Source: a virus. Taken from it: a stretch of 54,305 nt of DNA. A program made the translations under genes and the position numbers. The notes under the pieces were generated by a model. The model was not told the DNA's origin. It ran no database searches and saw nothing but the letters and a program-made list of their open reading frames with translations. The stretch lies in IMG/VR virus record IMGVR_UViG_3300035660_000014, positions 1 through 54,305 of that record; one strand, 5' to 3'. This document shows positions 12,063 through 54,305 of the stretch, in pieces. The first letter of the stretch is position 1. Each line of letters opens with the position of its first letter.

Positions 12063-12064
12063 GC

Positions 12065-18850: not shown

Positions 18851-19366
18851 TCACTCACGAACTTGGAGCGGGTAAGAGGTTGCCTCCAACCGGAGTTTCT
18901 CCGCGTTAGCCTGCATCAGGAGAGGTACATCGGTGTTGCCGAACCCCGGACCCCTTCTCCACTCCAATACCTCGTAGACCACACCACCGGGGAACTCGAA
19001 CTTGTCACCCGGACCCGCAACCATCACAACCTCCTTCGTTGTGGGGTCCTGAGTGGCAAGACCCACCTCGACGAGGTTGGGTACGGAGACGAAGAGGACC
19101 GCATCTCGGAGTTCCTCGATCCCGAACATTGTGAGAGGGTGGATCTGGTCCGCGGGAGCTACGTATGCCCTGAGGTTCACCACCTCTCCCCACCGCTTCA
19201 TGTAGAGGGGAACCTCGTCGTGGACCTCGTCTATCTCACCCTCAACTGGAGTTTGGAGGACCTGGTACGGGAGGAGTGGGAAGTACCTGTCACACCACTC
19301 CTTGACCATCTGGTAGGTGATGGTGATGTCGTAGATGTTGGCAAAGGTGGGGAAGCTAAACGGCAT
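18851..19366 (-). CDS. Neck/connector protein of unknown family
   Basis: This 171-residue protein begins MPFSFPTFANIYDITITYQM and is largely beta-rich, with a segment GPGDKFEFPGGVVYEVLEW near residue 125 reminiscent of head-tail adaptors that read a dimension and sit between connector and terminator. Two cis features support it as a real gene: an AGGAGACGGAGGT site before the ATG and tight overlap with the nucleotidyltransferase gene end. The exact family is not recognised. Context is the neck gene group between connector and sheath. Confidence 0.5.
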   Translation of the reverse strand: MPFSFPTFANIYDITITYQMVKEWCDRYFPLLPYQVLQTPVEGEIDEVHDEVPLYMKRWGEVVNLRAYVAPADQIHPLTMFGIEELRDAVLFVSVPNLVEVGLATQDPTTKEVVMVAGPGDKFEFPGGVVYEVLEWRRGPGFGNTDVPLLMQANAEKLRLEATSYPLQVRE

Positions 19367-25222: not shown

Positions 25223-25225
25223 TGG

Positions 25226-25792: not shown

Positions 25793-25810
25793 CTCTCCTC
25801 TCCTTTACCC

Positions 25811-25848: not shown

Positions 25849-25897
25849 ACCGGACGCAGAGGATCACCATGCACCACACAACTCCAGACCCTTCAGG

Positions 25898-27358
25898 TCA
25901 GGGGCCGAAAGCTCCCCCGGTCTGGGTCACGGTGCCAGTGCAGTACATGTTGGCGTTGACGACCTTGAGACCCGTCCTCTGCATCATCCCCTTCCTGGAG
26001 ATCATGTCGTCGAGGACGATGGTGGGGGTGACGTAGAGGGCGAGGTACGGTGCATAGATGTACCCCGTGTCGAGGAACGACGACCCCTTGAACCCCATCA
26101 GGAACGTGTTCCTCGCCATCGCGGGATCCTTGAACACGGCGAGGTCACCGAGTTCGCCGATCCTCCGGATGCCGACCACACTCGCTGCCGCACCCGCACC
26201 CGCGGATTTGAACTTGCTGAGGGTCTCGATGATGTCGCACACACCGATGCCCGCGACGACCCACGTCGCACTCCGCCGTTGCGTGGCCTGGAAGATGAGG
26301 TTCGACCCCTGGACGAACGCGTCGTAGAGGGACTCCTTATGCCAGATCCACGGAACGTTCACGGGAGGTGTCCTGTCCCACGTCACCGTACCCGCACCAG
26401 CGATCTGCTGGATGTGACGAACGATCTGGTAGTTGACCTCCTTCTGGATCTCGTTCGCCATAAAGGCGGTCACCTCGACCTCGGCGTTGATTCCGTGATA
26501 GGCCTCGAAGTCCTGCTGCGCCTCGATGGACCACCTCGCACGGAGCTTCCTGGGTCTCGCCGTGACGGGACTCGAGGTCAACAGGAGGTCGACTTCGGGG
26601 ATGTCGGTGTTCGCCTCCATGTTGTACTCGTACGAACAGGTGATCGCCGCACCAGCAGCGGGAGCGTTGGCGAACGTGCCGTTATACACACCGTTGGCGT
26701 AGTTGATCGTGTTCACGCCACCGGGGTTGACGTTGCCGACCAGCGCACCGTTCCCGTTGTCGACCACCTCCTGCGTCCCGTCGGTGAACTTCACCGTTCC
26801 CGCACGGACCGGGATGTGAGCGAGCGCACCGGTGCTACCGGCGGTCACACCGTCACCAGTGCCAACCGCCTCCTCCTCCACCACCTCGTCGGTGTAGTGG
26901 GTGTCGGCGGGGGCACCTGCACGGACGTCAAACATCCGCGAACCACGAGCGATCCGTCCCTTCTGGGTCCCATAGAGGACATCCAGATAGAAGACCAACC
27001 CTGTGGGTGCTGTGAGGGGTTGGACGGTGACCAACTCGTTTGCCACCAAGTTGGCGAACACCGCACGGATGAGAGGGAAGACGAACTTCTCGAACGACCC
27101 CACGTGGACCAACCTGGTGGTCTCGTCGAGACCCCGCAACCACTTCATCGAGTTCTCGAGGAGGATAGCGAGAGTCGCCCTAAGGTGTTCCTTGTCCTCA
27201 GGGATACCCTTCAGGAAGTCCACAGTCTTGTGCCGGGAGAACCCACGGATTGCGGAACCCGGCATGCTGCTCCACCTCTCCGCGAGTCGGACACCTATGG
27301 CGCGTGATTCCTCGAGGAGCGCCAAGTGGTCTCCCACGAGTTTGGGTTGCTGTTCCAT
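25898..27358 (-). CDS. Major capsid protein (T4 gp23-like) with inserted beta module
   Basis: This 486-residue protein has an N-terminal ~68-residue propeptide-like helical region (MEQQPKLVGDHLALLEESRA) with candidate hydrophobic-x-Glu cleavage sites (LAE at 25-27, IPE at 52-54, LLE at 66-68). Then FPLIRAVFANLVANELVTVQ and PLTAPTGLVFYLDVLYG match the T4 gp23 signature V-Q-P-M-x-x-P-T-G-x-x-F. The HK97 core continues through KLRARWSIEAQQDFEAYHG, EIQKEVNYQIVRHI and a C-terminal MGFKGSSFLDTGYIYAPYLA with TIVLDDMI. An insertion near residues ~185-250 is related to baseplate J modules. The strong AAGGAG site and following terminator fit very high expression. Confidence 0.92.
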   Translation of the reverse strand: MEQQPKLVGDHLALLEESRAIGVRLAERWSSMPGSAIRGFSRHKTVDFLKGIPEDKEHLRATLAILLENSMKWLRGLDETTRLVHVGSFEKFVFPLIRAVFANLVANELVTVQPLTAPTGLVFYLDVLYGTQKGRIARGSRMFDVRAGAPADTHYTDEVVEEEAVGTGDGVTAGSTGALAHIPVRAGTVKFTDGTQEVVDNGNGALVGNVNPGGVNTINYANGVYNGTFANAPAAGAAITCSYEYNMEANTDIPEVDLLLTSSPVTARPRKLRARWSIEAQQDFEAYHGINAEVEVTAFMANEIQKEVNYQIVRHIQQIAGAGTVTWDRTPPVNVPWIWHKESLYDAFVQGSNLIFQATQRRSATWVVAGIGVCDIIETLSKFKSAGAGAAASVVGIRRIGELGDLAVFKDPAMARNTFLMGFKGSSFLDTGYIYAPYLALYVTPTIVLDDMISRKGMMQRTGLKVVNANMYCTGTVTQTGGAFGP

Positions 27359-27420: not shown

Positions 27421-28776
27421 TCAAAAGCCTCTCTGGAACAACCTCTCGATTAGGGTGGTGCCACCCTTGCCCTTGTCCACTGAGACGTCCACTCCTCTCA
27501 CCCCTTCCGCGGGATCCACCAGCCTTGTCGCCGGTACCGCGGGTGGAGTGGTGGGTTGTCTCGACTCCCGAACGGTGGTCTTCGCGCCCCTGGTGCTGGG
27601 TCCCTTCAGTGGGAGACCCTTACACCTAAGGCGTAGTTCCTCGGTGATTTCCTTCAGTGCACCGTAACGGCGCTCACGAAGGAGTCTCAACCTCTTCTCC
27701 TCCCTTGCCCTCGTGAGGAGACTGTCCGCAAGCATGGTCGTCGCAGTTAGTCGCTTCTCGAGGACCTTCCTCTGACGGACCCTCTGGAGGAGTTCTTCGG
27801 CAATCGCCGTGGTTACGTTGAGTCGTTTCCTGAGGTCACCCTCTCGGGGAGGACCCATGGGGTGTGCCCTCGCGACAGCCAACTCGGATGCCAACGACTC
27901 AACCAGGTCAACCACTTGCTTGTCCATCGCTATCGCTCCGCGTTTGGGGTTCGGTGGGGACACCTTGTTAGGTACCAACCCACGCAGGTTCCGTTCCCTC
28001 AACACTTTTACCACCTTCTTGGAGGACTCCAGGAGTCTTTCCTTATAGAGGTTGGGCGAACTACCGAGTGCCCTCGAGGTGGACGCTAGGTGGCTACCCA
28101 GTTCGACCAGCGCTAGAGTGTCCACACCCGAGAGGTCACCACCCACCCTCTCGACCAACTCCTTCGCACGATTGAGGAGCGACGTGTGGGTGGACTTCTC
28201 GGACACAACAGGTGTGGGGTATGCGTAGTCGACAGAGGGTTGGTAGACACAATCCCAGGTGTCACAGTCGTAGTTGTCCTCCACGATATCTACGTCACCT
28301 TCCTTGTGAGTGTCCCCTCTACCCCTAGACGAGATACCAATAGGAACTCCACACGCGTGGAGTTCCTGGAGGATCTTCCCCCTCGGCGTGTCCAACACCA
28401 TATACTCACCCAGCACATACTTCCCCGCGGGAACACCGTACTCGTTCCCCTCCTCGAGGAACTCCATCCACGCCTTCTCCACCAAGTGGGAGACCCTCTC
28501 GAGGTGGGTGATACCCGTATCGGGGTGCTCGAGTTCGCCTAGCGCGAGTCTCGCTCGGACCCTCTTCTGGAGTGGCGAGTCGGGTGAGAGGTTCCTATTC
28601 CACACACTCTCGGGGTAGACTCGGTTGTTGGCGTTCTTGACCCCCACCATCTGGAACACACCCCGAGCGCGAAGTCTATCGCTCAAGGGTGGTTTAGCCC
28701 TCTCGATCACCACGTGGTGGGACACCAGCGGGTGGTCTCTCTCAACCAATTGCCGCGGTGAAGACGTGCTCGCCAT
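27421..28776 (-). CDS. Prohead protease (gp21-like) fused to a scaffold/core region
   Basis: In this 451-residue protein, residues ~20-215 show the gp21-type serine protease: V-x-N-A-N-N-R-V-Y-P, G-E-L-E-H-P-D (His84), and V-P-I-G-I-S-S-R-G-R-G (catalytic Ser at 149/150). Residues ~290-395 are highly charged and helical (EELLQRVRQRKVLEKRLTAT), as in prohead core/scaffolding proteins. Protease and scaffold thus appear joined in one chain, and self-cleavage would release them. The protease should mature the capsid protein and any internal proteins by cutting after hydrophobic-x-Glu. It lies directly upstream of the capsid gene. Confidence 0.82.
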   Translation of the reverse strand: MASTSSPRQLVERDHPLVSHHVVIERAKPPLSDRLRARGVFQMVGVKNANNRVYPESVWNRNLSPDSPLQKRVRARLALGELEHPDTGITHLERVSHLVEKAWMEFLEEGNEYGVPAGKYVLGEYMVLDTPRGKILQELHACGVPIGISSRGRGDTHKEGDVDIVEDNYDCDTWDCVYQPSVDYAYPTPVVSEKSTHTSLLNRAKELVERVGGDLSGVDTLALVELGSHLASTSRALGSSPNLYKERLLESSKKVVKVLRERNLRGLVPNKVSPPNPKRGAIAMDKQVVDLVESLASELAVARAHPMGPPREGDLRKRLNVTTAIAEELLQRVRQRKVLEKRLTATTMLADSLLTRAREEKRLRLLRERRYGALKEITEELRLRCKGLPLKGPSTRGAKTTVRESRQPTTPPAVPATRLVDPAEGVRGVDVSVDKGKGGTTLIERLFQRGF

Positions 28777-31660: not shown

Positions 31661-31668
31661 ACCACCCT

Positions 31669-32775: not shown

Positions 32776-32801
32776 ATACTCTCCTAACCGAGGGTGTGTG
32801 G

Positions 32802-34645: not shown

Positions 34646-34665
34646 ACCAACCTCACATCAAACAC

Positions 34666-35984: not shown

Positions 35985-35990
35985 AGTAGT

Positions 35991-36719: not shown

Positions 36720-36720
36720 C

Positions 36721-42271: not shown

Positions 42272-42272
42272 G

Positions 42273-42647: not shown

Positions 42648-42678
42648 GGCTGTGCCTCCTACCTAACCAACAAGTCCA

Positions 42679-42708
42679 CCGTACCAGTGGGAGACCACTT
42701 GGGTACGG
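42679..42708 (-). terminator. Imperfect hairpin in the gap between two beta-protein genes
   Basis: CCGTACCAGTGG at 42679-42690 pairs with CCACTTGGGTACGG at 42695-42708 with a small bulge. On the minus strand it lies between the stop at 42733 and the TTG at 42647 and is not followed by a T-run. It may be a weak terminator or an RNA-processing hairpin. Confidence 0.3.
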
Positions 42709-42732
42709 GTTCCACACCACTCCTTGTATCGG

Positions 42733-43083
42733 CTACACCAACGGTGAAGCCCAGATGTGGTTCGTGTCTGCGTAGAGCCTCAACAGGGTGACCTCGAGAT
42801 CCCTGTCAGCACCACCCGCTTGTCCCCTCACCCGCAAGAGGTTCCCACTCGTGGTATTCTTGACCACTATGTCCGCACCGGCACCGGCGGGACCCACTGT
42901 GAAAGACACACCAACGGTCGTCCAGGCAGCCCCGTCGAGAGACTCCTGGATGATAAGCGTCAGGGTGTTAGGTGTGAGGTTCCTGAACACGAACGTCCGC
43001 TGGAGAGAGTTGGTCTCCCTATCCTGGAGGATGGTCGCTTGTGCAGCGGGGACGTCGAGAATGTCGTTCACCAGGTCGATCAT
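42733..43083 (-). CDS. Beta-sandwich protein, paralogue of a head-region protein
   Basis: This 116-residue protein has its ATG overlapping the stop of a 50-residue zinc-ribbon gene as ATGA. The segment F-R-N-L-T-P-N-T-L-T-L-I-I-Q-E-S-L-D-G with A-A-W-T-T-V parallels the N-L-S-A-T-P-I-D-L-S-L-Q-D-S-D-D-G-V-T-W of the protein at 29038-29418, and NLLRVRGQAGG parallels YLQVTVNPG. This looks like a duplicated small all-beta structural protein, perhaps a decoration. Function unknown. Confidence 0.42.
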   Translation of the reverse strand: MIDLVNDILDVPAAQATILQDRETNSLQRTFVFRNLTPNTLTLIIQESLDGAAWTTVGVSFTVGPAGAGADIVVKNTTSGNLLRVRGQAGGADRDLEVTLLRLYADTNHIWASPLV

Positions 43084-43717: not shown

Positions 43718-45376
43718 TCAATCCACGTCAGCCCACTTCATGCAGGTCTGCAAGAGGTGATTGTAGTCACCACCCATCGCGTCGTCAAGGAACAACTTGA
43801 TCTCCTCCGGTTTGTATCCCGCCTTCCTGAGTGCAACACGCATCTTCCCGAGGAGGGCGAAAGCGTTGCCGTCGGTACCCACGAGTCTCACCCTAGGTCG
43901 TCTGGGGTCGGTTTCAGGGTTGAACGCTCCGGAACCAGTGGGTGTAGGTTCACCCTCCTGTTCTCTTGGTGTCTTCGTGATCACGTCATCACCCACAATG
44001 TCCTTGCCACATGCCGCGCAGTGTGCATCGCCTCCCGGCAGGAAACTCACTTGGTCGGAACCGCAGTAGGGACACTCGAACGCGGGTTCACCTCCTTGCT
44101 CCCTTACCCGATGGAGCAGACCCGACCGTTCGTCCAGCAGTTTGTCCACACCAGCTTCCAAACCCTTATCGAGGGTAGCCTGGACAACTGCGTCACTCAC
44201 ACCACGTCGGGTGAAGGGTGTGCGACCCTCACTCGAGTGGTGGAACTTGTCCTGGTACATGTCACGCATAGCCTTCGTGGGTTCCTTGTGTGGGTCGCCC
44301 ACATCGACGTCGTGCTCGATTTTGAGTATCTCGGCAGCGCGTTCACGGCCCGCACGGATGTCCGCCCTGTCACCATAGTAGTTCTCGTCCTCACACGCGA
44401 GGACGAACGCCACATCGGGAGGGACACCGTTACGGATCGCCCTTAGAGTCTTGGGTATGATGTATCCCAACCCCCGCTCGGGATCCGTGGGTTGCTCACG
44501 AAGTCTGGAACGACCTTCCCGCTGTGTTGCCTTCGCGAGTTGCTGGACCTTCACCGTCGCACCTTTCAGGTTGAGGATCGAGGGATGTGTGGTTCCTCCA
44601 CCCACATACTCCTTCCCGACGAGGAACGAGGAGTGAGCCTTGAACCACCCCATGTCGTCGGGGTCTCTAAGTTTGACCTCCTCGATGGGGATCTCCACAC
44701 GGACGAGGAACTTGTCGGGTGTGTCCTCGTCAAAGGGAACCACGGAAGCCTTCCACGGGAGGGTTACACTGTTCAACACCTCACCCATACTCAACCTCAC
44801 CTTTTCGGCTTCCTCCTGTGTACCGAACGCTGCGGTGAGTCGTTGTTCCTTCGTCACCCACCTGAACTGTGCGGGGTCGACCGGAGGACGGCGAGAGGGG
44901 AGGTACACGTCGCCTCCTTGTTCACCTACTGTGTGGGGTTCCTCCTCAGGAGGGACCTCTCCTGTTGAGGGTTCGCCCACCGAATGGGGTTCCTCAGGTG
45001 GCGGTTCGGGTAGAGGTTCCTCAGCGGGAGGGAGTTCGACCGGAGGGGTCAAACTCACCTTCGGGAGGTTCGTGGTCAACTCCTTCACCAGGTCGAAGAT
45101 CGCCTGCCCGGTAACCTCACTAGGTGTCCCATCACCGAGTCTCCCAGCCAACGCTTGCTGCCACACCGAGTCCTCCACGTTGGCTACCACACTGGGGTCG
45201 AGCTGGACACCCAGTTCGCCGATCGCGGTGCCCACTCTTTGGAGGACCCAGTCGTGGACTAGACCCTCGGTGACACCCTTTCCCTTCGGGCGACCCTCGA
45301 TGGGTTCGCCACAGGAGAGGATGCTCTCCAACGCACTTGTCTCGCCTTCACCCAACAGGTCTTTCGGGTTCGGCAT
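43718..45376 (-). CDS. Large multidomain protein with zinc ribbon and hydrophobic-x-Glu sites
   Basis: This 552-residue protein starts MPNPKDLLGEGETSALESIL, with an AGGAGG site. Regions in order: a helical N-terminus ending in L-G-E; a Pro/Glu-rich linker with V-G-E-Q; a mixed alpha/beta domain around residues 160-260; L-R-E-Q near 290; a helical V-D-K-L-L-D-E followed by V-R-E-Q; a zinc ribbon (CPYCGSD ... CAACGKD); P-R-E-Q-E-G-E-P; and a C-terminal helical domain with L-V-G-T-D-G-N-A-F-A-L-L-G and GGDYNHLLQTCMKW. The C-terminal domain recurs in many phage proteins as a conserved module of unknown role. The recurrent E-Q junctions suggest processing into pieces. Confidence 0.5.
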   Translation of the reverse strand: MPNPKDLLGEGETSALESILSCGEPIEGRPKGKGVTEGLVHDWVLQRVGTAIGELGVQLDPSVVANVEDSVWQQALAGRLGDGTPSEVTGQAIFDLVKELTTNLPKVSLTPPVELPPAEEPLPEPPPEEPHSVGEPSTGEVPPEEEPHTVGEQGGDVYLPSRRPPVDPAQFRWVTKEQRLTAAFGTQEEAEKVRLSMGEVLNSVTLPWKASVVPFDEDTPDKFLVRVEIPIEEVKLRDPDDMGWFKAHSSFLVGKEYVGGGTTHPSILNLKGATVKVQQLAKATQREGRSRLREQPTDPERGLGYIIPKTLRAIRNGVPPDVAFVLACEDENYYGDRADIRAGRERAAEILKIEHDVDVGDPHKEPTKAMRDMYQDKFHHSSEGRTPFTRRGVSDAVVQATLDKGLEAGVDKLLDERSGLLHRVREQGGEPAFECPYCGSDQVSFLPGGDAHCAACGKDIVGDDVITKTPREQEGEPTPTGSGAFNPETDPRRPRVRLVGTDGNAFALLGKMRVALRKAGYKPEEIKLFLDDAMGGDYNHLLQTCMKWADVD

Positions 45377-45638
45377 CTGTCGTTCCTCCTTCGTCCCTCA
45401 GTAGTTCCTCGAGAGTGCCACGGAGGTCATCCAAAGGGAGGGACAACCTTTTGTTGGCCAACTTCGAGGTCGCTTCCGTAACCTCGAATTTTCTGGAGCA
45501 GATGATGCAGGTTGCCTCACCGGGGAGGACCTTATAGGGTCTCCCGCTCTCGTACGCGGGTGTGACGATGATGTTCCCACAGTGGGGACACCTCAGGTCA
45601 CCCAAACACGTCACCTCCGCACTGAGTCCGTTCCTCAC
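45348..45638 (-). CDS. Zinc-ribbon protein
   Basis: This 96-residue, GTG-initiated protein has TAGGAGAG upstream. The N-terminal half is a ribbon: L-R-C-P-H-C-G-N-I-I and A-T-C-I-I-C-S-R-K-F, then a helical basic tail (LPLDDLRGTLEELLRDE). It overlaps the following large gene by 29 bases and the sigma-like gene by four. Operon order suggests it may act with the sigma-like protein in transcription, but no direct evidence exists. Confidence 0.5.
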   Translation of the reverse strand: MRNGLSAEVTCLGDLRCPHCGNIIVTPAYESGRPYKVLPGEATCIICSRKFEVTEATSKLANKRLSLPLDDLRGTLEELLRDEGGTTDAEPERPVG

Positions 45639-46054
45639 TGACTCTCTCCTATGGTGGAAACAGGTTCGGGTTGCTGCGTGAGGATGGGTGGGTACCCATG
45701 CATGCGTGCGATGTCAACGTACCGCTTGAACCTCCGTGCGGAGTCGAGTTCGCACATGATCTCGTTCCAGATGGCCTTGTAGGCGTAGGTTGAGAACTTG
45801 ACTCTGGTGGGGTCGAACTCACCCGAGACTGCTTTCTTCGCAGCCTTTATCAACCCCACCAGACCGATCTGGACGAGGTCCTCGTAGGCGTACCCGTACT
45901 TCATCCCGAGGGCGACGTACTTCTTCGCAACGCTGTGAGCGAGACCCATGTGGTCGGTGATGAGTTTGAACTCATCGACCCCGGCAACCTCCACTATGTG
46001 GTCCACGATTCCCTCCCATGTGAGTTGTACCCTCTCGTGTGGTCTCACGCGCAC
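45635..46054 (-). CDS. Sigma-70 family protein, region 2 only
   Basis: In this 139-residue protein, residues ~35-115 read as sigma-70 region 2: A-H-S-V-A-K-K-Y, Y-G-Y-A-Y-E-D-L-V-Q-I-G-L-V-G-L-I-K-A-A, F-D-P-T-R-V-K-F-S-T-Y-A-Y-K-A-I-W-N-E-I. The D-L-x-Q-x-G and F-S-T-Y-A core and -10-binding helix are intact. Region 4 is absent, so it would need a partner for -35 recognition, as T4 gp55 does with gp33/sliding clamp. GTG 46054 follows GAGGT; a second GTG at 46006 has GGGAGG. A near-consensus promoter lies directly upstream. Likely a late-gene sigma factor. Confidence 0.78.
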   Translation of the reverse strand: MRVRPHERVQLTWEGIVDHIVEVAGVDEFKLITDHMGLAHSVAKKYVALGMKYGYAYEDLVQIGLVGLIKAAKKAVSGEFDPTRVKFSTYAYKAIWNEIMCELDSARRFKRYVDIARMHGYPPILTQQPEPVSTIGESQ

Positions 46055-46066
46055 ACCTCATCTTAT

Positions 46067-46095
46067 ATTATATGGTCTCACCCTCAAGGAATCAA
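46067..46095 (-). promoter_or_regulatory. Sigma-70-type promoter for the sigma-like gene
   Basis: On the minus strand TTGATT (46095-46090) is followed by a 17-base spacer and TATAAT (46072-46067), a near-perfect host housekeeping promoter. Transcription should begin around 46060, only a few bases before GTG 46054, giving a very short leader. It is the clearest promoter in the window and suggests the host polymerase starts the phage sigma gene, which then would switch on the late genes. Confidence 0.75.
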
Positions 46096-46113
46096 GAGGG
46101 GTACCAGATTTTC

Positions 46114-46350
46114 CTACTTCCCCATCGCTGCGAGAACCTCATCAAGGAGGCGGTAGACCACCTTGAGTGCACCAAGTGCGACACCGTAGAACGTTCCCGA
46201 GACGCCACGTGACGTAACACGTCCGATCGTGGTCAACTGCTTAACCACCCTCGCAAGCATGGACTGAAACTCCCTCTCGGTCGCCTCGTCAACCTGCTGA
46301 CCGTTACCAAGGATCTTGTCAACCGCTCTCGCGACCTCACCTTTTGCCAC
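46114..46350 (-). CDS. Small protein with AVDKIL-type N-terminal helix
   Basis: This 78-residue protein starts at GTG with GTAGGAGG upstream. It begins M-A-K-G-E-V-A-R-A-V-D-K-I-L-G-N-G-Q-Q, a copy of the helix shared by neighbouring genes, but with Asn where others have Glu. The rest is hydrophobic and helical (YGVALGALKVVYRLLDEVLA). The ATG-spaced gap downstream (46055-46113) holds the promoter. Possibly an uncleaved internal head protein. No family is recognised. Confidence 0.5.
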   Translation of the reverse strand: MAKGEVARAVDKILGNGQQVDEATEREFQSMLARVVKQLTTIGRVTSRGVSGTFYGVALGALKVVYRLLDEVLAAMGK

Positions 46351-46360
46351 GACTCACCTC

Positions 46361-46651
46361 CTACACGGAGTGGATATCCACCATCAGGGAGTCCTGTCCC
46401 GCCATGGCGTGGGTACAGTCGGGGAGGAACTTTATCACGCCGTCCGTCACTGTCAGGTGGCACACCTTCCCGGCACCGTCTATCGGGTACCTCACCACGA
46501 GGGAGGGCGAGAAAGTTGGTCTCTCGAGGTCACAGTTGAAGGTCCACTCGGTAGAGAACTTGTGGTGGAACCCACACGCGGGACAGAAGAATACCCACCC
46601 GGTCAAGGTACCCGCTGCGTCCCGAATCGCTTGGACCTTGGGAGAGGTCAC
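46361..46651 (-). CDS. DUF6527 family protein
   Basis: About 96 residues from GTG 46651, which overlaps the upstream TGA and has AGGAG nine bases before. An earlier in-frame ATG would add a meaningless extension. It contains F-F-C-P-A-C-G-F-H-H, W-T-F-N-C-D-L-E-R-P-T-F-S-P-S-L-V-V-R, C-H-L-T-V-T-D-G-V-I-K-F-L and D-C-T-H-A-M-A-G-Q, the signature of DUF6527. These small proteins are common in phages and prophages. The family is clear, but its function is unknown. Confidence 0.75.
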   Translation of the reverse strand: MTSPKVQAIRDAAGTLTGWVFFCPACGFHHKFSTEWTFNCDLERPTFSPSLVVRYPIDGAGKVCHLTVTDGVIKFLPDCTHAMAGQDSLMVDIHSV

Positions 46652-46944
46652 CTCTGGATGCTCCTGAGTAGGGTCCTCAACCTCTCCAGCACCAAATAAG
46701 TCACACCCAACTCCTCCCACACGGCGTCTCTCACCTTGGGACCCAACTTCTTGTCGTGTAGGTACCCCGAGAGTTCCTTCACCCTCGACTCCACCCAATG
46801 GAGTGAGTCCCTCGCGGAGGTACCGACGTTCTGAACATACTCCTTGTCGACCTTCGGAGACACCATGTCGGGTGAGGGTGGTGGCACACACCCACCCTCT
46901 AGCAACTCGTCCACCAGTTCGGTGATCTTACTCGACCTGGACAT
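46648..46944 (-). CDS. Small helical protein with LVDELLE-type N-terminus
   Basis: About 98 residues from ATG 46944, beginning M-S-R-S-S-K-I-T-E-L-V-D-E-L-L-E-G-G, a member of the shared helix ending in hydrophobic-x-Glu. A further helical body follows (RDSLHWVESRVKELSGYLHD). It overlaps both neighbours. The start was chosen because sister genes begin in the same way; a weak ribosome binding site means coupling is likely. Function unknown. Candidate internal head protein. Confidence 0.5.
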   Translation of the reverse strand: MSRSSKITELVDELLEGGCVPPPSPDMVSPKVDKEYVQNVGTSARDSLHWVESRVKELSGYLHDKKLGPKVRDAVWEELGVTYLVLERLRTLLRSIQR

Positions 46945-47164
46945 CGATAACACCACGAGACAGGTTACTCGCAAGGTTCGCTGCCACGTCAGCATCACCC
47001 CTGACGTAGAGGTACACCTTTGGCGGACCCAGGTTCGTCACGTAGTACCTCCAACCGTCAGCGGTACGCTCACGGTAGACGGACCAACCACCCAACTTCA
47101 GAACGTGTACGTCCTGCTCGTTCACCAACGAGTCGACCGCGTTCTCGATCTCGTTTCGTGCCAT
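46928..47164 (-). CDS. Small protein with AVDSLVNEQ N-terminal module
   Basis: About 78 residues from ATG 47164 (GGGGGTG upstream), beginning M-A-R-N-E-I-E-N-A-V-D-S-L-V-N-E-Q. The remainder is a compact alpha/beta domain (VLKLGGWSVYRERTADGWRY, then VTNLGPPKVYLYVRG). The N-terminal helix up to V-N-E is nearly identical to those of several genes nearby. A cut after this Glu would release the domain. Function unknown. Confidence 0.55.
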   Translation of the reverse strand: MARNEIENAVDSLVNEQDVHVLKLGGWSVYRERTADGWRYYVTNLGPPKVYLYVRGDADVAANLASNLSRGVIDVQVE

Positions 47165-47184
47165 TCCGTTCACCCCCAGCCAAC

Positions 47185-47445
47185 CTACCAACTAAGCGTG
47201 TGCTCGTCCCTACTGTCCTCCCAACCCAACTTGTAGGCCTTTTCAAGAGCACGCTTCACGATGATCCTCGCTTGGTCGTAAACGGGACCAAACAATGCTG
47301 GGTCGTGGTGCACACCCACCCATTGGGCAATTTCCTCCGCAGTACAAATCGCCAAACTGTTGGGAACGAACCGACTAGGTCCACCCTCTTGCTCGCGAAC
47401 GAGGTTGTCGACCACTTGTTTGACCGTTCTGGGGTCCACCATCAC
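47185..47445 (-). CDS. Small protein with VVDNLVREQ N-terminal module
   Basis: About 86 residues, start GTG/ATG near 47445 after GGTAGGAG. It begins M-V-D-P-R-T-V-K-Q-V-V-D-N-L-V-R-E-Q-E-G-G, then a helical domain (VYDQARIIVKRALEKAYKLG). The same helix-plus-E-Q arrangement as the surrounding genes suggests a common signal. Function unknown. Confidence 0.55.
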   Translation of the reverse strand: MMVDPRTVKQVVDNLVREQEGGPSRFVPNSLAICTAEEIAQWVGVHHDPALFGPVYDQARIIVKRALEKAYKLGWEDSRDEHTLSW

Positions 47446-47451
47446 ACACTC

Positions 47452-47937
47452 CTACCACGTCGACTCGAAGTTCCTGCCACCCCTCGGGAAGGTGATCATC
47501 CTGCCACCACCCACCTGGTTGAGCTTCATTCCCACCAACTCCTCCAACGCGGCGTGAACCTGTGGTGCGATTGCCGCTTCCATCGTCTCCCTGTCGTAGT
47601 CGAGTTCGAACTCGACGTCGTCGGTCGGTTCCTTTGTCTTGACGTCCACGTGGAGGGACTTCCTAACACGAGCCGTAACCGGGATGGTAACCGAGAACGT
47701 GAGTTCACCAGCGTCCTCCGAACCCGCGTAGAGGATCCTATGGCCACCCTTCGTAAGGAGACCAGAGGGTTCACCTGTTGCCCACGGACGAGTGGGAACA
47801 GGTTCCTCAGAGTCCGGAGGTGGGATGAGTTTGCGACCGTGCGTCCGCAAACGTGGGGTTGGTGAGGGATCCTGTGTGGGTGACTCCTGTTCACCCACCA
47901 GACGGTCAACCGCCTTCCGGATCTCGTTACGTGCCAC
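47452..47937 (-). CDS. Protein with AVDRLVGEQ N-terminal module and alpha/beta domain
   Basis: About 161 residues from GTG 47937 (AAGGAG upstream; the longer in-frame ATG is rejected because the module starts here). It opens V-A-R-N-E-I-R-K-A-V-D-R-L-V-G-E-Q, then a Pro-rich stretch, then a beta-rich domain (ELTFSVTIPVTARVRKSLHV) with a helix (ETMEAAIAPQVHAALEELVG). It overlaps the AAA+ gene end. Candidate internal head protein. Confidence 0.55.
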   Translation of the reverse strand: MARNEIRKAVDRLVGEQESPTQDPSPTPRLRTHGRKLIPPPDSEEPVPTRPWATGEPSGLLTKGGHRILYAGSEDAGELTFSVTIPVTARVRKSLHVDVKTKEPTDDVEFELDYDRETMEAAIAPQVHAALEELVGMKLNQVGGGRMITFPRGGRNFESTW

Positions 47938-50900
47938 TTTTCGGCTCCTTACCCGGTTCGTACTCGGGTGGTTGGTGGGAGAAGTTGAGGTTCGGCGTCT
48001 CACCCGTTACGTTGGTCCACATCTGGGAGAACTCCTCCGCCTTCTCCTGGGTAGTGAATTCTATGGCGACGGTGTTGAGGTTCACGTCGTCCACCACAAC
48101 CTTCCCACCGTGGTCCTTCACTAGAGTGTCGAACTGCTCGGGTACCGCGAGTCTCTTGTGCCGAGCGACCCACACTGTGGGTTTCTCGTCCTTCTTGGGT
48201 GGTGTAGGTTCACCCTCCTGTTCCCTCACCTGTCTGGTGGACTCCTCCTTGCGGGGACCGAACTTGCTACACGCGGGTTGGTCTCCCTTCACGTCGGTGG
48301 AACCGGAGTCGGGGTTCGAGCACTTACCCCAACCCTCCCTCTGAGGGTTCGACCCGTAGTAGACACACTTCGAGTGGATTGCGGGACCTTGTTCGGCTAG
48401 GACCTTGTCGACTGCCCGTTCGATGGCATCCCCAACCCCGTGGGGTGGAACTCCACTGAGTGGTTCCTCAGGAGGGTTACCACCCTCCGCAGCCATGTCC
48501 TCCATGCTCGGTAGGTCGCTCGCGTTGGGCGAGATCGCGAACGTGTACCACCTCGGACCCTCGTCCGTCCCGTACATCATCGCAAAGTATTGTATCCCCT
48601 CGGTGGAGTCGACCTTTCCCCTCAGGTAGTACAAGTTCTGGGGACGAAATTGCGCAATTGGGTCCTCCATGATGTCAACATGTGTGATCTCGAAGGAACC
48701 GCGACGTCCAGCACCTAACGCGTCACCAGCACCCAGGAGGGTGTCCTTGTCGAACGGGTCCTTGTAGTCCAACCACAACGCGAGTTTGTCGCCCAAGGGG
48801 TGGTCGGCCGTGATCTCGACACGTTCTCCCAACCGAGTGGGTTGGTCCACAAGCTGGTGGAACCCACACGACTTGCACTCTACAACTCCCACCTCGGGTC
48901 TGTCCTCAAGAGGAGTAACCTCAACGTTGGTGGACTTACACCGCGAGCACCTCTCACTCTTAACCTTCCCCCTCTTGCCCTTCCGTTTCATCTTCGCCTT
49001 GCACTTGGTGCACGTCACCTCGTTGACGTCCGAGGTGACGAGGTACGTGGGCGACCTACGACCGAGGTCGCCACTGGTGTCGCACAGTGTCTTACCTGAT
49101 CCGGTCTTGAGGTGGACAACCTCGGTCTGGAGAGACTCGAGAGGCGGAGGTTCCACACCACGACTCACGCTCTTCGTCCCTCCACGTGCGACCAATAGGC
49201 CTCTCACATACTCCCTCACCTGGTGCAGTGCACGAGAACGGCTAGCGGAGTCCTGGTACTTGTATGGGACCTCCGCGACACTCTCTTTGGCATCGGTGTC
49301 GGGGTCCCACTTCGAGACGACCAGTTCGCCACCGTTGTCGTAGATAGCGTAAGTCGTCCCGTCGTTAGCTTTGTAGGTGGGTTTGAGGGCCTTCCAGTTG
49401 GGTCCAACCGTGTGTGCTGGGTCGACGTCCTCTTGTGGCTCACCCAACACCTTGTCGACAGCACTCTCGATGGAGTCCTCGTCACTCCACCTCTTTGTCG
49501 GCTTACATTCGTAAACCGAGTAGGGGACACCGAGACGTTGGACTACCCTGAGTGCTTTCTCCTGAGACTCGGTGTCGGGAAACTCCATCTGCACCCTACC
49601 GGAGGTCTTGTCGATGTCGAACCTGCTCGGTTGGGCACCCGCGTCGGCGAGTTCCTCCTTGACCGAACCCACCAGGTCGAGGTCGGTGAACTCGAAGTCG
49701 ATGCCCTCCCGCTTCACCGACTCACCGGGACCTTTGGTCTGGTCGAAGTTACCCTCCCACTTGCAGGTTGGACACCGAGCGTGACCTTGGAAGAACTCCA
49801 GCGGGTGTCTACAGGTGGGACAGAGGAGGGTCCCCGACTCGTCCACACTTTGAAGCTCGCGCAAGATATCATGTGCGAGCTCACGGATCTCCTCTTCCTC
49901 CTCAGGTGTGGGTGCCACACCACCTGACTTGTTGTGAAACCTACCGTGAAGCGACCTGATGATGGGTGCTACCTCGTCCTCACCCTGAAACGCGGCAACA
50001 AGGTCGCGGAAGTCTGCCGCCACAACCTCACCCCGCATATCGTCGACAAGAAACTCCTCCAACCGCTTCGGTCTCCGGATGAGTGGCACAAGTTGCTCGA
50101 GTGTGAGGGTCTCCTCGTCCGCCCTGGGAGTGTAGATCCCTGTGAGGGACTCCTTAAGGGTCTCCGCCTTGGGTTCCTCGTAGTGTGCCTTCTTGTCCTC
50201 CCCGATGGAGAGGAGACCCAACCTGGAGGGCAACTTGTCGGAGGGGGAGGACCTAAGGCGCTTGACAACCTCGTCAACTGGTTCGCCAAACGCAAAAGAG
50301 GCGATGACAAACTCCCTAAGGTGACCGAACGAGAACCCGTCCGTCTTCTTCACGAGGTCGTCAATGGCCTCGTCCTCGACCACACCCTTGAGTTTGTGGC
50401 TGAGGTACGCCTTCCTTCCCTCGGCAGGAAGCGTACCGAAGAAGACCTTCCTATCGAACCTCCCCGGACGGAGCAACCTCGGAGGGAACTTCTCTATGTA
50501 GTTCGTGCTCCCGAGGTAGAGGACGTTGTCGACGCTGTTGTCACCGTCTAGGAGTTGCAACAGGGAGTGCTCGCTGTAGCCCACATACTCGTCCAAATCC
50601 TCGAGGACCACGACAACCTTCCTATCGGGTTCGACCTGGCGGAACGCCTTGAGACACTCGATAAGGCTGCTGAGGTCGCGAGCGAAGAACACCACGTCAC
50701 CTCTCTTGATCATCCTCTCCGCGACCTGCTGGATGAGACATGACTTTCCTGTCCCAGGAGGGCCGTAAAGGAGGATGCCTCTGTTGTGGAGGAACCCGAG
50801 CTTCTGGAAGTTCGGCTTGAGGGTCCAGAACGTAGTGACCTCAGCGATGACCTTGTCCATCGCGGTGTTCGGGAACTCGAGGAGCTCGTCCGTCCTCGGT

Positions 50901-51133
50901 TTCACCTTGATGAACTTCGGTCCCTCACAGGTGGTGACCACCTTGTAACCGAACTCCTGGAGTGCGGGACTCAGGACGACGGGACCGACTGGGCTGAATT
51001 CGTTCCCGTCCCTCACGTACTGGGTGTAAGCACGTTTGAGGACCTCGTCACCGGGTGAGCACTCAGTGGACTTGGGAGAGCCAAACCCCTCGGTCAACGG
51101 GTCGACCGCTTTCTTGATCTCGTCGCGTGACAT
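47927..51133 (-). CDS. AAA+ ATPase polyprotein with several hydrophobic-x-Glu modules
   Basis: About 1068 residues from ATG 51133 (TAGGAG site). It begins M-S-R-D-E-I-K-K-A-V-D-P-L-T-E-G. Residues ~90-300 are a classical AAA domain: Walker A G-P-P-G-T-G-K-S (124-131), Walker B VVVVLEDLDE (173-182), G-S-T-N sensor 1 and R-P-G-R-F-D-R. After it come a helical segment, a CPTCRHPLEF ... CPTCKWEGNF ribbon, a ferredoxin-like module, D-S-I-E-S-A-V-D-K-V-L-G-E-P, further zinc ribbons (CTKCKAK, CSRCKST, CKSCGFH), D-A-I-E-R-A-V-D-K-V-L-A-E-Q-G-P, and V-R-E-Q-E-G-E-P. It reads like a chain of domains separated by cleavable helices. Confidence 0.6.
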   Translation of the reverse strand: MSRDEIKKAVDPLTEGFGSPKSTECSPGDEVLKRAYTQYVRDGNEFSPVGPVVLSPALQEFGYKVVTTCEGPKFIKVKPRTDELLEFPNTAMDKVIAEVTTFWTLKPNFQKLGFLHNRGILLYGPPGTGKSCLIQQVAERMIKRGDVVFFARDLSSLIECLKAFRQVEPDRKVVVVLEDLDEYVGYSEHSLLQLLDGDNSVDNVLYLGSTNYIEKFPPRLLRPGRFDRKVFFGTLPAEGRKAYLSHKLKGVVEDEAIDDLVKKTDGFSFGHLREFVIASFAFGEPVDEVVKRLRSSPSDKLPSRLGLLSIGEDKKAHYEEPKAETLKESLTGIYTPRADEETLTLEQLVPLIRRPKRLEEFLVDDMRGEVVAADFRDLVAAFQGEDEVAPIIRSLHGRFHNKSGGVAPTPEEEEEIRELAHDILRELQSVDESGTLLCPTCRHPLEFFQGHARCPTCKWEGNFDQTKGPGESVKREGIDFEFTDLDLVGSVKEELADAGAQPSRFDIDKTSGRVQMEFPDTESQEKALRVVQRLGVPYSVYECKPTKRWSDEDSIESAVDKVLGEPQEDVDPAHTVGPNWKALKPTYKANDGTTYAIYDNGGELVVSKWDPDTDAKESVAEVPYKYQDSASRSRALHQVREYVRGLLVARGGTKSVSRGVEPPPLESLQTEVVHLKTGSGKTLCDTSGDLGRRSPTYLVTSDVNEVTCTKCKAKMKRKGKRGKVKSERCSRCKSTNVEVTPLEDRPEVGVVECKSCGFHQLVDQPTRLGERVEITADHPLGDKLALWLDYKDPFDKDTLLGAGDALGAGRRGSFEITHVDIMEDPIAQFRPQNLYYLRGKVDSTEGIQYFAMMYGTDEGPRWYTFAISPNASDLPSMEDMAAEGGNPPEEPLSGVPPHGVGDAIERAVDKVLAEQGPAIHSKCVYYGSNPQREGWGKCSNPDSGSTDVKGDQPACSKFGPRKEESTRQVREQEGEPTPPKKDEKPTVWVARHKRLAVPEQFDTLVKDHGGKVVVDDVNLNTVAIEFTTQEKAEEFSQMWTNVTGETPNLNFSHQPPEYEPGKEPKSGT

Positions 51134-51146
51134 CGGAGCACTCCTA

Positions 51147-51392
51147 CTAGTCACCACCCATTCCGGCAACCGATTGCACGTCTTGCAGAATCCGGTCCAG
51201 GTCGTTGAGTAGTGCTTGACCTGAACCTAGATTGATGTCCCTGTCGATGAGACTCACCAGATGGTCGAGCGCATGTTTGATCTCCCCCACCTTGGCTACC
51301 ACCTCGTCGTAGGGTTGTGATCCACCACCCTCGGGTGGTCCCTGTTCACCCACCAACCGGTCGACCGCTTTCTGGATCTCGTTCTTTGCCAT
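51147..51392 (-). CDS. Small protein with AVDRLVGEQ N-terminal module
   Basis: This 81-residue protein begins M-A-K-N-E-I-Q-K-A-V-D-R-L-V-G-E-Q-G-P-P-E, almost identical to the start of the gene at 47452-47937. A Gly-rich hinge follows, then a helical domain (YDEVVAKVGEIKHALDHLVS, then GQALLNDLDRILQDVQ). A cut after V-G-E would free a ~64-residue helical peptide. Candidate internal head protein. Confidence 0.6.
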   Translation of the reverse strand: MAKNEIQKAVDRLVGEQGPPEGGGSQPYDEVVAKVGEIKHALDHLVSLIDRDINLGSGQALLNDLDRILQDVQSVAGMGGD

Positions 51393-51404
51393 GTTACGTT
51401 ACCT

Positions 51405-54305
51405 CTACCAACCCTGACCACCTAGTGGGTAACCGGGTTGTGGATACCCACCCTGCACTTGCCTACCCTGGTCCCTCGTGTGAGGTCTCAACTTCGCCAA
51501 CAGCGCCTGGGCAACTGTGGGTGCTTCGTGAGTGGGTAGCAGACGACGAACGTGCCTCAGATACGCTGCTGCAGCCTCTATCCCAGCGGAGTCGACCTCA
51601 CGGAGAAACTCCTCGCACTCGGGGGTTGTGAACGAGTACCAGTCACCGTGAGGTGTCTTAACGTCGGTCTTCTCCTTGAGGATTTGGTCGACCGCCCCCT
51701 CGATGGATTCCTCCTCGGGTGCGTATTGCGCGGGACGGAGTTTCAGGTAAGCCTTCCCACCGAGTTTCCTCACACGCGACCTGAACTCCTCCGCTTTGTC
51801 GCTCGGAACGAGGAACTCGATCCATCCCACGCTGTGACCGGTAACCCTCCCACCGAGTTCCTTCGCGATCACCTCCAGGTTGGTGAGTGCGTCGTCAGGT
51901 GGTATGGTAGGGGTGATGTCCTTCGTGAGCACGGAGAACCGGGACTCGGTGGTTGGTTCACCATTGTCGGGTTGGTAGAACTCTTCCACACCACCTTGGT
52001 AGTAGCAGTCGTTGCAACGAATTATTGTCCCCTCTTCGGGGTCGTTGACGTCCATTAGGCTAGAAGACCCACACCTCGGGCAGGTACCCTGCTTCTGCTG
52101 CTCCACTTCGGTGGTTGAACCTCCTTCCTCACCGAGGACCTCATCTGGGTTAGCGACTCCCAGATCCATAAGTTTCGCTCTCAACTCCTCAACGGGTTCA
52201 CCCGCTTCCTTCGCACGTGAGTACTGGTCCAACAACCCAACCACACGCTCATACCAGGGGAGACCTTTCGCCCAACTTGAAAGAGCGGAGCGACTGATAC
52301 CCGATCGCTCACTAGTCGGAATCACAAAACCGCAGTTGGGACACCTTCCGTGCTCGTCAGGTACGACCTGCTCGTCACACGCCTGGCACCGTACCGTGTT
52401 GGAGGGTTCGCGACGAGCTTCTTGTTTGTGATAACCCCTTACCGGTCTATCGAGTCCCGCACTGAACTTCATGTTCGTAGTTACGGGCACCTCCGTGTTA
52501 CAGATTCTACACTTCACGGAGGTTATCTTACCCGACTCGTCCGCTCGGTAACCCAACAAAAGAGGATCGGGGCACTTGCAACCCGCCTTCCTCAACATAC
52601 GTACCCATCTCTTCTGAACTGAGAGTTCTTCCTCCACTTTCGACTCGACTGTCAGCAAACCACCCACCTGCTCCGTGGACTTGAACGGTTCCTCGATCTC
52701 CATCGGGTTCCCGATCCCGTACAGGTCCGCTTCCACCTGGTCGATGTCGATCCTGAGGAGGGTAACAGGTTGTGCGTCCCCCGGGACGTCAGACTGACCA
52801 GCCAATACAACGTCAGTTACAACGCCCGGGAGGTGTCCACCACTCCCGTAGTAGAGATCTCTTACCATCACCTTATCACCCACGTGTACATCACTACCCC
52901 AAACACGCCTTGTGTCAAGGTCCTCCTCCCTTGGTTCCCGACCGATGTTCGTGACACCATAGTCGCTCAACTCCGACCGCCTGAAGCACATCCCGCAGTC
53001 GGCACAGCACCACTCGTCGGGGTCGCCAGGGGTAGGACGGAGTGGACCACCACACTTTGGGCAACGACTCTCCTTGAGGTTGTCCTCCCCCACAACCTCA
53101 CCAACCTGTTCCTCCACCCGATAGGAGAGTCCATGGTCGTCGAGGAGACGTTTCGCGCTCTCCAGGTCCTCAGGTGAGTGGAACCATATAATAGTGTGAC
53201 CGTCTTTGGAACCCTCGTCTTTGAACTCGAACCCTGCATCACCCAACACTCGGAAGGCTTGAAGGGAGTCGCCCTCGGGGATGGCCAACATCCGCTCGGG
53301 TTCGATGTGCCTAGCTTCCTTCACGTTCGCGTACAGTGCCGCGAGGTGCTTCTTTGCCTTCGCCTTCGAGGAGTGGGTTCCGTGAACCTTCCCTGTCTCC
53401 TTGTTGACCACCTTCCACTTGTCGCCATCCTGTTGGATCTCGTAGGGGTTCTCAGTGAGGAGGGACTCGGGCAACACGAAGGAGATGTGACGCAACCCCT
53501 TCTCGGTTTGTTGCATGAGCACCGTCCTATCCACACCACCATGCTTGACAGCCCGACCTATGGCTTCAACCGCGGCGTCGTAGTCACGACGAACTGCGAG
53601 GACTCGCACGGGGTTTTGGTTGTCGGGGTCGTCCACCTCTACCACTGCGTAGTAACCCATCGTGAGGTTTCGCAACTCGTCGTCCACAGTTGACCTGGTA
53701 GACTCAACAACACATGTGATGCCCGCAGCATCAAGAAGCTCGCGAGCGGCATCACGATCGTCCTGTGTGTGGAACGAGAAGACGGTACGTCCACCTATCC
53801 CCTCATCCTCGAACTCCAAACCAACATCACTCATCGCACGGGAGGCTTGGACAGCCTCCTCATCAGGAACGGAGAGGTCGAGGGAGAAGTACCCAACCTG
53901 CTCCCGGACACGTTGTTTCGACTCACCCTCTTTCAACAACCAGTTCACTACGTCACCGGTCTTTGACTCAAGATCGTGTCGCTGAGAAGACTTCCACTGC
54001 CTCAACTCCTTTCTCTTCCTGTTCAAGTCCCGTACTCGAGCGTCGTACTCCGCAGTCTGTCTGTCTTCCGGCGTCGTGTAGGTCTTACGAATCAGGTCCT
54101 CCATATCACAGATTTCCCTCTTGAGAGCATCTTCGTAGTCGTCCTGCTCCGTCTTCGACTCACCTTGCCCACCACGAGTGATCCGCTCGATCTCCGCGAC
54201 CACAGCATCCCAAGTGGCGAGTCCGAGGTGGGGTAGTTGCAAACCTACCCTCCTAGCAATCTCCTCGTGTTGGTCCTCTAGTGACCCGAACCCCTCGATG
54301 TCCTC
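51405..54305 (-). CDS. Giant zinc-ribbon/ferredoxin-like polyprotein (5' end outside window)
   Basis: The frame is open to the window edge, so the start lies beyond 54305; at least 966 residues are visible. Repeated ~65-residue modules with a beta-alpha-beta rhythm occur (VGLEFEDEGIGGRTVFSFHT and AGFEFKDEGSKDGHTIIWFH). There is a conserved phage segment with GKVHGTHSSKAKAKKHLAAL, and several zinc ribbons (CPKCGGPL ... CADCGMCF; CQACDEQ ... CPNCGFV; CPRCGSSS ... CNDCYYQ). Hydrophobic-x-Glu helices recur, including E-S-I-E-G-A-V-D-Q-I-L-K-E-K and R-V-R-E-Q. No enzyme motif is seen. Likely processed in the same manner as the AAA+ protein, if the hypothesis holds. Confidence 0.5.
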   Translation of the reverse strand, partial: EDIEGFGSLEDQHEEIARRVGLQLPHLGLATWDAVVAEIERITRGGQGESKTEQDDYEDALKREICDMEDLIRKTYTTPEDRQTAEYDARVRDLNRKRKELRQWKSSQRHDLESKTGDVVNWLLKEGESKQRVREQVGYFSLDLSVPDEEAVQASRAMSDVGLEFEDEGIGGRTVFSFHTQDDRDAARELLDAAGITCVVESTRSTVDDELRNLTMGYYAVVEVDDPDNQNPVRVLAVRRDYDAAVEAIGRAVKHGGVDRTVLMQQTEKGLRHISFVLPESLLTENPYEIQQDGDKWKVVNKETGKVHGTHSSKAKAKKHLAALYANVKEARHIEPERMLAIPEGDSLQAFRVLGDAGFEFKDEGSKDGHTIIWFHSPEDLESAKRLLDDHGLSYRVEEQVGEVVGEDNLKESRCPKCGGPLRPTPGDPDEWCCADCGMCFRRSELSDYGVTNIGREPREEDLDTRRVWGSDVHVGDKVMVRDLYYGSGGHLPGVVTDVVLAGQSDVPGDAQPVTLLRIDIDQVEADLYGIGNPMEIEEPFKSTEQVGGLLTVESKVEEELSVQKRWVRMLRKAGCKCPDPLLLGYRADESGKITSVKCRICNTEVPVTTNMKFSAGLDRPVRGYHKQEARREPSNTVRCQACDEQVVPDEHGRCPNCGFVIPTSERSGISRSALSSWAKGLPWYERVVGLLDQYSRAKEAGEPVEELRAKLMDLGVANPDEVLGEEGGSTTEVEQQKQGTCPRCGSSSLMDVNDPEEGTIIRCNDCYYQGGVEEFYQPDNGEPTTESRFSVLTKDITPTIPPDDALTNLEVIAKELGGRVTGHSVGWIEFLVPSDKAEEFRSRVRKLGGKAYLKLRPAQYAPEEESIEGAVDQILKEKTDVKTPHGDWYSFTTPECEEFLREVDSAGIEAAAAYLRHVRRLLPTHEAPTVAQALLAKLRPHTRDQGRQVQGGYPQPGYPLGGQGW

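What the first reader, a model, noticed from the sequence alone, without database searches (positions are those of the whole stretch)
43718..54305. A recurrent AVD-x-L-h-x-E helix heads or punctuates about a dozen proteins and looks like a capsid-targeting/cleavage signal
Seen: N-termini at 51392, 51133, 47937, 47445, 47164, 46944 and 46350 share x-E-I-x-x-A-V-D-x-L-h-x-E followed by Q or G (e.g. MARNEIENAVDSLVNEQ, MAKNEIQKAVDRLVGEQ). Related copies lie inside the large proteins near 49,450 (VDKVLGE), 48,400 (VDKVLAE), 51,680 (VDQILKE), 44,135 (VDKLLDE) and, outside this cassette, 20,500 (VDGLLGE), 20,030 and 19,470 (VDGLFGE). Extra h-R-E-Q junctions occur near 44,100, 44,500, 48,220 and 53,900. 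Known: T4 internal proteins carry an N-terminal amphipathic capsid-targeting sequence ending in (I/L)-x-E, cut by gp21. This phage has a gp21-like protease. Inference: these are head-packaged, protease-processed internal (poly)proteins, including an AAA+ ATPase, perhaps ejected into the host. I know of no description of such a multi-gene polyprotein set.
Basis: partly seen in the sequence, partly recalled or inferred. Interest (0 to 1): 0.95.

Follow-up and report, generated by a model that had tools for sequence, protein, structure and literature searches.

The report
Repeated head-targeting tag punctuates phage polyproteins
A phage puts the same short helical tag at the front of many small proteins and between the domains of its large ones, most likely to send them into the virus head and let the head protease cut them apart; relatives do the same with their own version of the tag, one of them in a 4,069-residue polyprotein.

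Summary
The window carries 14 copies of (I/V)xx(A/V)VDxLhxE in 10 proteins: 7 at N-termini and 7 between domains; 13 of 14 end in h-x-E. A profile built only from the N-terminal copies finds 4 internal copies where 0.03 are expected. Flanking DNA is unrelated, so selection acts on the protein. The phage has an intact gp21-type (S77) protease. Relatives with gp23-like capsid proteins show the same architecture with genome-specific spellings: 'DPIEQAIDMVLxE' (G005), 'xxIExAIDxMLTE' (L058, tandem units that also exist as a separate gene) and 'ESIGGLDRMLSE' punctuating 3,090- and 4,069-aa proteins with ART-like and NUDIX domains (G007). In L058 and G005 tagged genes sit directly upstream of the portal gene. 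Tags are absent from replication genes. Best reading: a T4-CTS-like capsid-targeting and cleavage tag used as punctuation in head-packaged 'polyvalent' polyproteins, cut in trans by the prohead protease. Packaging, cutting and ejection are inferred. CTS, S77 maturation and polyvalent proteins are each known; one genome-specific tag used as both N-terminal label and inter-domain punctuation was not found described. New variant of a known kind.

The parts
51147..51392 (-). 81-aa protein, N-terminal tag MAKNEIQKAVDRLVGE|QGPP
   Evidence: Shine-Dalgarno-like GAGG upstream
47927..51133 (-). 1068-aa polyprotein: N-terminal tag MSRDEIKKAVDPLTE|G, AAA+ ATPase (residues about 33-305), internal tags at residues 555 and 904, VREQ at 969
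   Evidence: Pfam AAA 3.9e-16; its G005 homolog is related to Cdc48 and YjoB; tags; AF2 helix 554-562 in a confidence trough between two folded segments
49439..49471 (-). internal tag IESAVDKVLGE
48392..48424 (-). internal tag IERAVDKVLAE|Q
48218..48229 (-). VREQ junction in the AAA polyprotein
47452..47937 (-). 161-aa protein, N-terminal tag VARNEIRKAVDRLVGE|Q
47185..47445 (-). 86-aa protein, N-terminal tag TVKQVVDNLVRE|Q
46928..47164 (-). 78-aa protein, N-terminal tag MARNEIENAVDSLVNE|Q
46648..46944 (-). 98-aa protein, N-terminal tag SKITELVDELLE|GG
46114..46350 (-). 78-aa protein, N-terminal tag EVARAVDKILGN, without Glu (predicted targeted but not cut)
43718..45376 (-). 552-aa polyprotein: N-terminal domain that in relatives is part of shorter proteins, LREQ at 44492, tag LEAGVDKLLDE at 44129, VREQ at 44096, C-terminal phrog_1933 domain
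   Evidence: phrog_1933 2.4e-19; G001 241-aa homolog of the N-terminal domain
51405..54305 (-). 966-aa (incomplete at the contig end) modular protein with VREQ at 53898 and tag IEGAVDQILKE at 51672
   Evidence: AF2 shows folded segments separated by troughs at 127-141, 202-285, 327-337, 399-412
19356..21431 (-). 691-aa protein: nucleotidyltransferase-like domain, three internal tags (20490, 20019, 19458), basic C-terminal tail RRKRRRRRR
   Evidence: (NTP_transf_2 6.5e-4, just under the cut-off)
27421..28776 (-). prohead protease of family S77 (gp21-like), the proposed cutter
   Evidence: Pfam 5.8e-12, phrog_207 1.8e-32, conserved GELEHP and SSRG motifs in 9 phages
25898..27358 (-). gp23-like major capsid protein with conserved candidate L/M-x-E sites near residues 68 and 79

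Best explanation
The repeated helix is a capsid-targeting and cleavage tag. Its conserved core (I/V-x-x-A-V/I-D-x-L-h) binds a trans-acting partner of the prohead, probably the inner core or scaffold, and brings the tagged polypeptide into the prohead. The S77 protease then cuts after the h-x-E that ends most copies. Small proteins carry one tag at the N-terminus. Large proteins carry tags between domains, so each is a polyprotein whose domains, including the AAA+ ATPase and a nucleotidyltransferase-like domain, are released as separate head-packaged proteins, probably effectors delivered with the DNA. Shown: recurrence, placement at N-termini and between domains or repeat units, protein-level selection, E enrichment, co-occurrence with S77, concerted divergence between genomes. 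Inferred: binding partner, packaging, actual cutting, ejection.
For: Window: 14 copies, far above shuffles. Core copies found without requiring Glu: 37 in three genomes; 28 have Glu at D+4 or D+5 and all 28 fit h-x-E (17% expected, p about 1e-14; the proteins were pre-selected as tag carriers). Flanking DNA 26-31% identical (chance) against 54-68% in the motif, codons near usage expectation. G005: 4 N-terminal seeds find 12 hits of at least 14 bits against 0.20, including the N-terminus of the AAA homolog; none in the region of DNA polymerase, clamp and helicases. L058: four homologous units (three fused, one a separate gene) each directly preceded by the tag, between terminase and portal. G007: 13 hits of at least 18.8 bits, all in the 3,090- and 4,069-aa proteins and none of at least 12 in the other 207. 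Copies cluster by genome (p = 2e-4), as expected if they match a partner in the same phage. S77 protease in all 8 capsid relatives searched. No HExxH peptidase in the window's tagged proteins, so cutting would have to be in trans. T4 precedent: the CTS separates targeting residues from processing residues and cutting is after Glu; copies without Glu fit targeting without cutting.
Against: No virion proteomics. Some copies lack a usable Glu (46350; the L058 AAA protein; C-terminal copies in L058 and G004). Several S77 relatives show no or few copies (G001, G002, G008), so the tag is not required for S77 head maturation; these are fragments. L058 and L057 are fragments in which no protease could be seen. 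An AAA homolog in a 395-kb phage (L055) lies away from head genes. Cultured, more distant relatives (Molly_1, QdP_Psa3, phiXF1) show h-x-E sites but no obvious recurrent tag (by eye). AF2 models were made without alignments and are low confidence (mean pLDDT 42 and 49).
Confidence: 0.74

Rival explanations
1. The helix is a docking or targeting tag only: it binds a scaffold, portal or core protein but is not a protease site. Glu is part of the helix and the large proteins stay whole in the head, as the N4 virion RNA polymerase does.
For: Copies without Glu exist at N-termini (46350) and at C-termini (L058 'VDSVIDKLVGARPL', G004 'VESVIDRLLV'), and the register of Glu varies between D+4 and D+5.
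Against: 28 of 37 core copies end in h-x-E against 17% expected for Glu alone; an S77 protease is encoded; homologous units begin right after the Glu; extra VREQ junctions outside the helix.
Confidence: 0.16
2. The motif acts in the infected cell and not in the virion, for example as a shared interaction helix or degradation signal for a late cytoplasmic complex built round the AAA+ ATPase.
For: An AAA+ ATPase of the Cdc48/YjoB group is present and carries the tag core in three phages; no proteomics exists.
Against: Tagged genes lie directly upstream of the portal gene in L058 and G005 and in late-gene blocks elsewhere; the AAA homolog in L055 lies away from such genes and lacks a clear tag; tags also sit on GNAT, ParB-like, ART-like and NUDIX proteins with no need for one complex.
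Confidence: 0.06
3. The copies are relics of recent duplication or recombination (a mobile 5' cassette) without function of their own.
For: Two window copies are nearly identical in protein sequence; codon identity is slightly above expectation in the window and G005 (0.55 vs 0.44, 0.52 vs 0.40).
Against: Flanking DNA is at chance identity, synonymous positions differ, and the principle recurs in diverged phages with different spellings.
Confidence: 0.03

Closest known systems
T4 capsid targeting sequence of internal proteins IPI-III (Black and co-workers)
   Same: Short N-terminal peptide shared by otherwise unrelated proteins, ending in h-x-E, in a phage with a gp21-type protease; T-even internal proteins are diverse and share only the CTS (PMC3012670; PMC9026906).
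   Different: T4 tags are N-terminal on internal proteins; here the tag also punctuates multidomain proteins and sits at some C-termini, in many copies with genome-specific spelling.
phiKZ, 201phi2-1 and SPN3US head maturation (gp21-like proteases, S/A-x-E or A-x-E sites)
   Same: Many head and ejection proteins cut after Glu by a gp21-like protease (PMC9026906; PMC10052503).
   Different: In SPN3US 13 of 14 sites remove N-terminal propeptides; no recurrent targeting helix or polyprotein punctuation is described in the passages read.
Polyvalent proteins of phages and conjugative elements (Iyer et al. 2017, PMC5512222)
   Same: Multidomain proteins combining ART, GNAT, ParB-like, NTase and other domains, in phages predicted to be packaged in the capsid and injected.
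   Different: Release was proposed through embedded metallopeptidase domains; here the window proteins have no HExxH and carry repeated tags for an external prohead protease.
P1 DarB packaging signal (PMC9024508)
   Same: The N-terminal 30 residues suffice to target a protein into the capsid.
   Different: A single protein; not a repeated inter-domain motif.

Membership tests
T4-type capsid targeting sequence (CTS) | Short (10-19 residue) N-terminal peptide shared by unrelated proteins | tested here: met
   7 window proteins with tags ending at residues 15-19
T4-type capsid targeting sequence (CTS) | Ends in (I/L)-x-E or similar | tested here: met
   13 of 14 window copies; 28 of 37 over three genomes
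T4-type capsid targeting sequence (CTS) | gp21-type protease encoded by the same phage | tested here: met
   not visible in the L058/L057 fragments
T4-type capsid targeting sequence (CTS) | Sequence homology to the T4 CTS itself | not tested
   only the general form resembles it
T4-type capsid targeting sequence (CTS) | Directs protein into the prohead and is removed there | not testable with these tools
   needs experiment
Peptidase S77 (prohead protease) | Family profile and conserved His and Ser motifs | tested here: met
   PF03420 5.8e-12; GELEHP and SSRG conserved
Polyvalent proteins | Several unrelated domains in one polypeptide, of effector type | tested here: met
   G007: Arr/KptA-like ART matches below cut-off and NUDIX 2.5e-13; G005: GNAT + ParB-like; window: AAA+, NTase-like just under cut-off
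Polyvalent proteins | Encoded beside virion, portal or terminase genes | tested here: met
   L058 between terminase and portal; G005 directly upstream of the portal
Polyvalent proteins | Embedded metallopeptidase for self-processing (frequent, not universal) | tested here: not met
   No HExxH in window tagged proteins; HExxH strings only in the G007 giants
Polyvalent proteins | Packaged and injected | not testable with these tools
   no proteomics

The most novel reading that the evidence does not exclude
A true phage polyprotein system: one genome-specific address helix, co-diverging with its prohead partner, marks the polypeptides bound for the head interior and the domain boundaries inside giant precursors (up to 4,069 aa). 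The prohead protease turns these precursors inside the head into a set of separate effectors, so any domain can be added to the payload by placing it beside a tag.
Probability: 0.5. Interest if true: 0.87.

Novelty: new variant of a known kind. Interest (0 to 1): 0.75.

Why it matters
It gives a sequence-only way to read off which proteins a phage puts in its head and where they are cut, links polyvalent proteins to prohead proteolysis, and predicts exact mature N-termini that mass spectrometry can test. A tag that targets and releases cargo, in several genome-specific versions, would also be a tool for loading proteins into phage heads.

Tried and rejected
Duplication of DNA as the cause: rejected by flank identity at chance. 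AVD-type regex in G007, G004, G001 and G002: few or no hits; unsupervised recurrence then showed that G007 uses a different spelling. Degenerate DNA scans of the viral collection for the G005-type tag found only G005 itself, for the window-type tag nothing, and for the G007-type tag two extra contigs that gave no GGLDRML reading frame. tblastn of the 966-aa protein in phages: none. Single-sequence AF2 models too weak for fold search, so none was run. Cultured distant relatives (Molly_1, QdP_Psa3, phiXF1) read by eye: no obvious recurrent tag. MCP search in bacterial genomes: no relative, so no host clue. Literature phrases for 'phage polyprotein' gave nothing.

Full report
WHAT WAS CHECKED. 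The window is a 54.3-kb IMG/VR virus fragment (G000). The phage genes followed here lie on the minus strand. Every hit of the strict pattern falls in a minus-strand coding frame. There are 14 copies in 10 proteins: seven within the first 19 residues and seven inside larger proteins. A profile built only from the seven N-terminal copies recovers internal copies in the AAA protein and in the 691-aa protein at 16-20 bits, with 4 observed and 0.03 expected in shuffled proteins. The copy at 46350 lacks Glu; two others have it one residue earlier. The extra VREQ/LREQ junctions are real, and h-x-E-Q is enriched only in the cassette (12 against 2.2).

PROTEIN, NOT DNA. Between copies, the motif DNA is 54% identical and the flanking 36 bases on either side 26-27%, which is chance. 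Synonymous codons are used almost freely (0.55 same codon against 0.44 expected). G005 and G007 behave likewise. The motif is therefore kept by selection on the protein and is not a recent duplication.

THE MACHINERY. The 27421-28776 protein is an S77 prohead protease. Its GELEHP and SSRG motifs are conserved in nine phages. The capsid protein is gp23-like, and two L/M-x-E sites in its N-terminal region are conserved across the relatives. Which of them is cut is unknown.

RELATIVES. A two-sequence capsid profile found further phages. G005 (135 kb) has its own spelling, DPIEQAIDMVLxE. Four N-terminal seeds recover 12 copies of at least 14 bits against 0.20 expected. They include the N-terminus of a free-standing AAA protein 56% identical to the window's ATPase domain, and a block directly upstream of the portal gene. 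A weaker copy lies between a GNAT and a ParB-like domain. No copy of that strength lies in the region encoding DNA polymerase, clamp, DnaB-type helicase and exonuclease. L058/L057 carry the cassette between terminase and portal. There, four homologous units (19-52% identical in pairwise local alignments), three fused in one protein of about 980 aa and one encoded as a separate gene, are each directly preceded by the tag: NDFIEREIDRVLSE|AFQSK, HTFIETMIDRMLTE|TFKSK, NDPIEEAIDHVLLE|AVKSE and SEQIESAIDLMLTE|TLRSN. The same unit thus occurs either as its own tagged gene or as a tagged segment of a polyprotein. G007 (164 kb) uses ESIGGLDRMLSE. All 13 hits of at least 18.8 bits (10 of them seeds) lie in two giant proteins of 3,090 and 4,069 residues; the other 207 proteins have none of at least 12 bits. 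Those giants contain ADP-ribosyltransferase-like stretches (below Pfam cut-off), a NUDIX domain and HExxH strings, the sort of domains described in the polyvalent proteins of Iyer et al. (PMC5512222). G004 has one internal copy and C-terminal copies on repeat proteins; G001 has terminase and portal side by side without a cassette.

WHAT THE TAG LOOKS LIKE. When only the core is sought, with no Glu required, 37 copies are found in the tagged proteins of three genomes. Of these, 28 have Glu at D+4 or D+5, and in all 28 the residue two before it is hydrophobic, giving h-x-E (17% expected). The proteins had been chosen as tag carriers, so the p-value is indicative. Copies resemble those of their own genome more than those of others (76% nearest neighbours within the genome against 33%; p = 2e-4). 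That is expected if each phage's tags match one partner of its own. Low-confidence AF2 models agree with linker positions: the tag at residue 554 of the AAA protein is a helix in a confidence trough between two better-predicted segments, and the 966-aa protein shows folded segments separated by troughs that hold h-x-E sites.

INTERPRETATION. T4's CTS has residues for targeting (4 and 7) and for processing (8 and 10), and cutting is after Glu (PMC9026906). T-even internal proteins are diverse and share only the CTS (PMC3012670). The present tag has the same form: a conserved core, a usual h-x-E end, and some copies without Glu that would target without cutting. The new element is its use as punctuation inside multidomain proteins. 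The published explanation for release of polyvalent domains is an embedded metallopeptidase; the window's tagged proteins have no HExxH, so the prohead protease acting in trans is the natural candidate. Cutting, packaging and delivery remain inferences.

LIMITS. No proteomics; fragments; gene starts in the relatives come from a simple caller; distant cultured relatives were only read by eye; no control set of phages without S77 was scanned; literature limited to open-access full text.

Noticed in passing
window 5904-8954: Baseplate J-like protein interrupted by an intein (Pfam Intein_splicing 2.6e-17, residues 73-410); the G002 homolog lacks it. Similar intein-like insertions appear to interrupt the portal proteins of G001 and L058.
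   Followed up: partly
window 41045-42271 and 4303-5886: Long tracts of C(E/Q)xxC(E/Q) repeats (GCEVTCEVGCEVTCE...), also in G002 and G008; no Pfam match for 41045-42271.
   Followed up: no
window 21433-23140: A Gfo/Idh/MocA-type oxidoreductase appears in two short ORFs next to a TnsA-like/NUMOD3 endonuclease gene, between head-tail and capsid genes.
   Followed up: partly
window 30836-39519: Cluster of glycosyltransferase-, methyltransferase- and UDP-GlcNAc 2-epimerase-like genes (Epimerase_2 6.5e-99 for 31669-32829; the others judged by eye) inside the structural gene block.
   Followed up: no
window 45635-46054: Sigma-70 region 2 protein (2.4e-12) among the tagged genes but without a tag.
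   Followed up: no
window 19356-19490; G001 25077-26066; G007 140539-152748: Shared C-terminal tail (TTSGSVAGYGVPLG... followed by RRKRRRRRR) after a tag or tag-like stretch; cutting there would free a small strongly basic peptide.
   Followed up: partly
G004 32259-32897 and 42239-42814; L058 1-411: SLEGAP repeat proteins that end in a C-terminal copy of the tag without Glu.
   Followed up: partly
L055 9848-10852: AAA homolog (54% to the window domain) in a 395-kb phage contig with an S77 protease elsewhere, away from head genes and with only a vaguely tag-like N-terminus.
   Followed up: partly
phiXF1 (PP475461) 8245-12261: 1338-aa modular protein with the AAA domain at its C-terminus (41% identity), opposite in order to the window protein.
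   Followed up: partly
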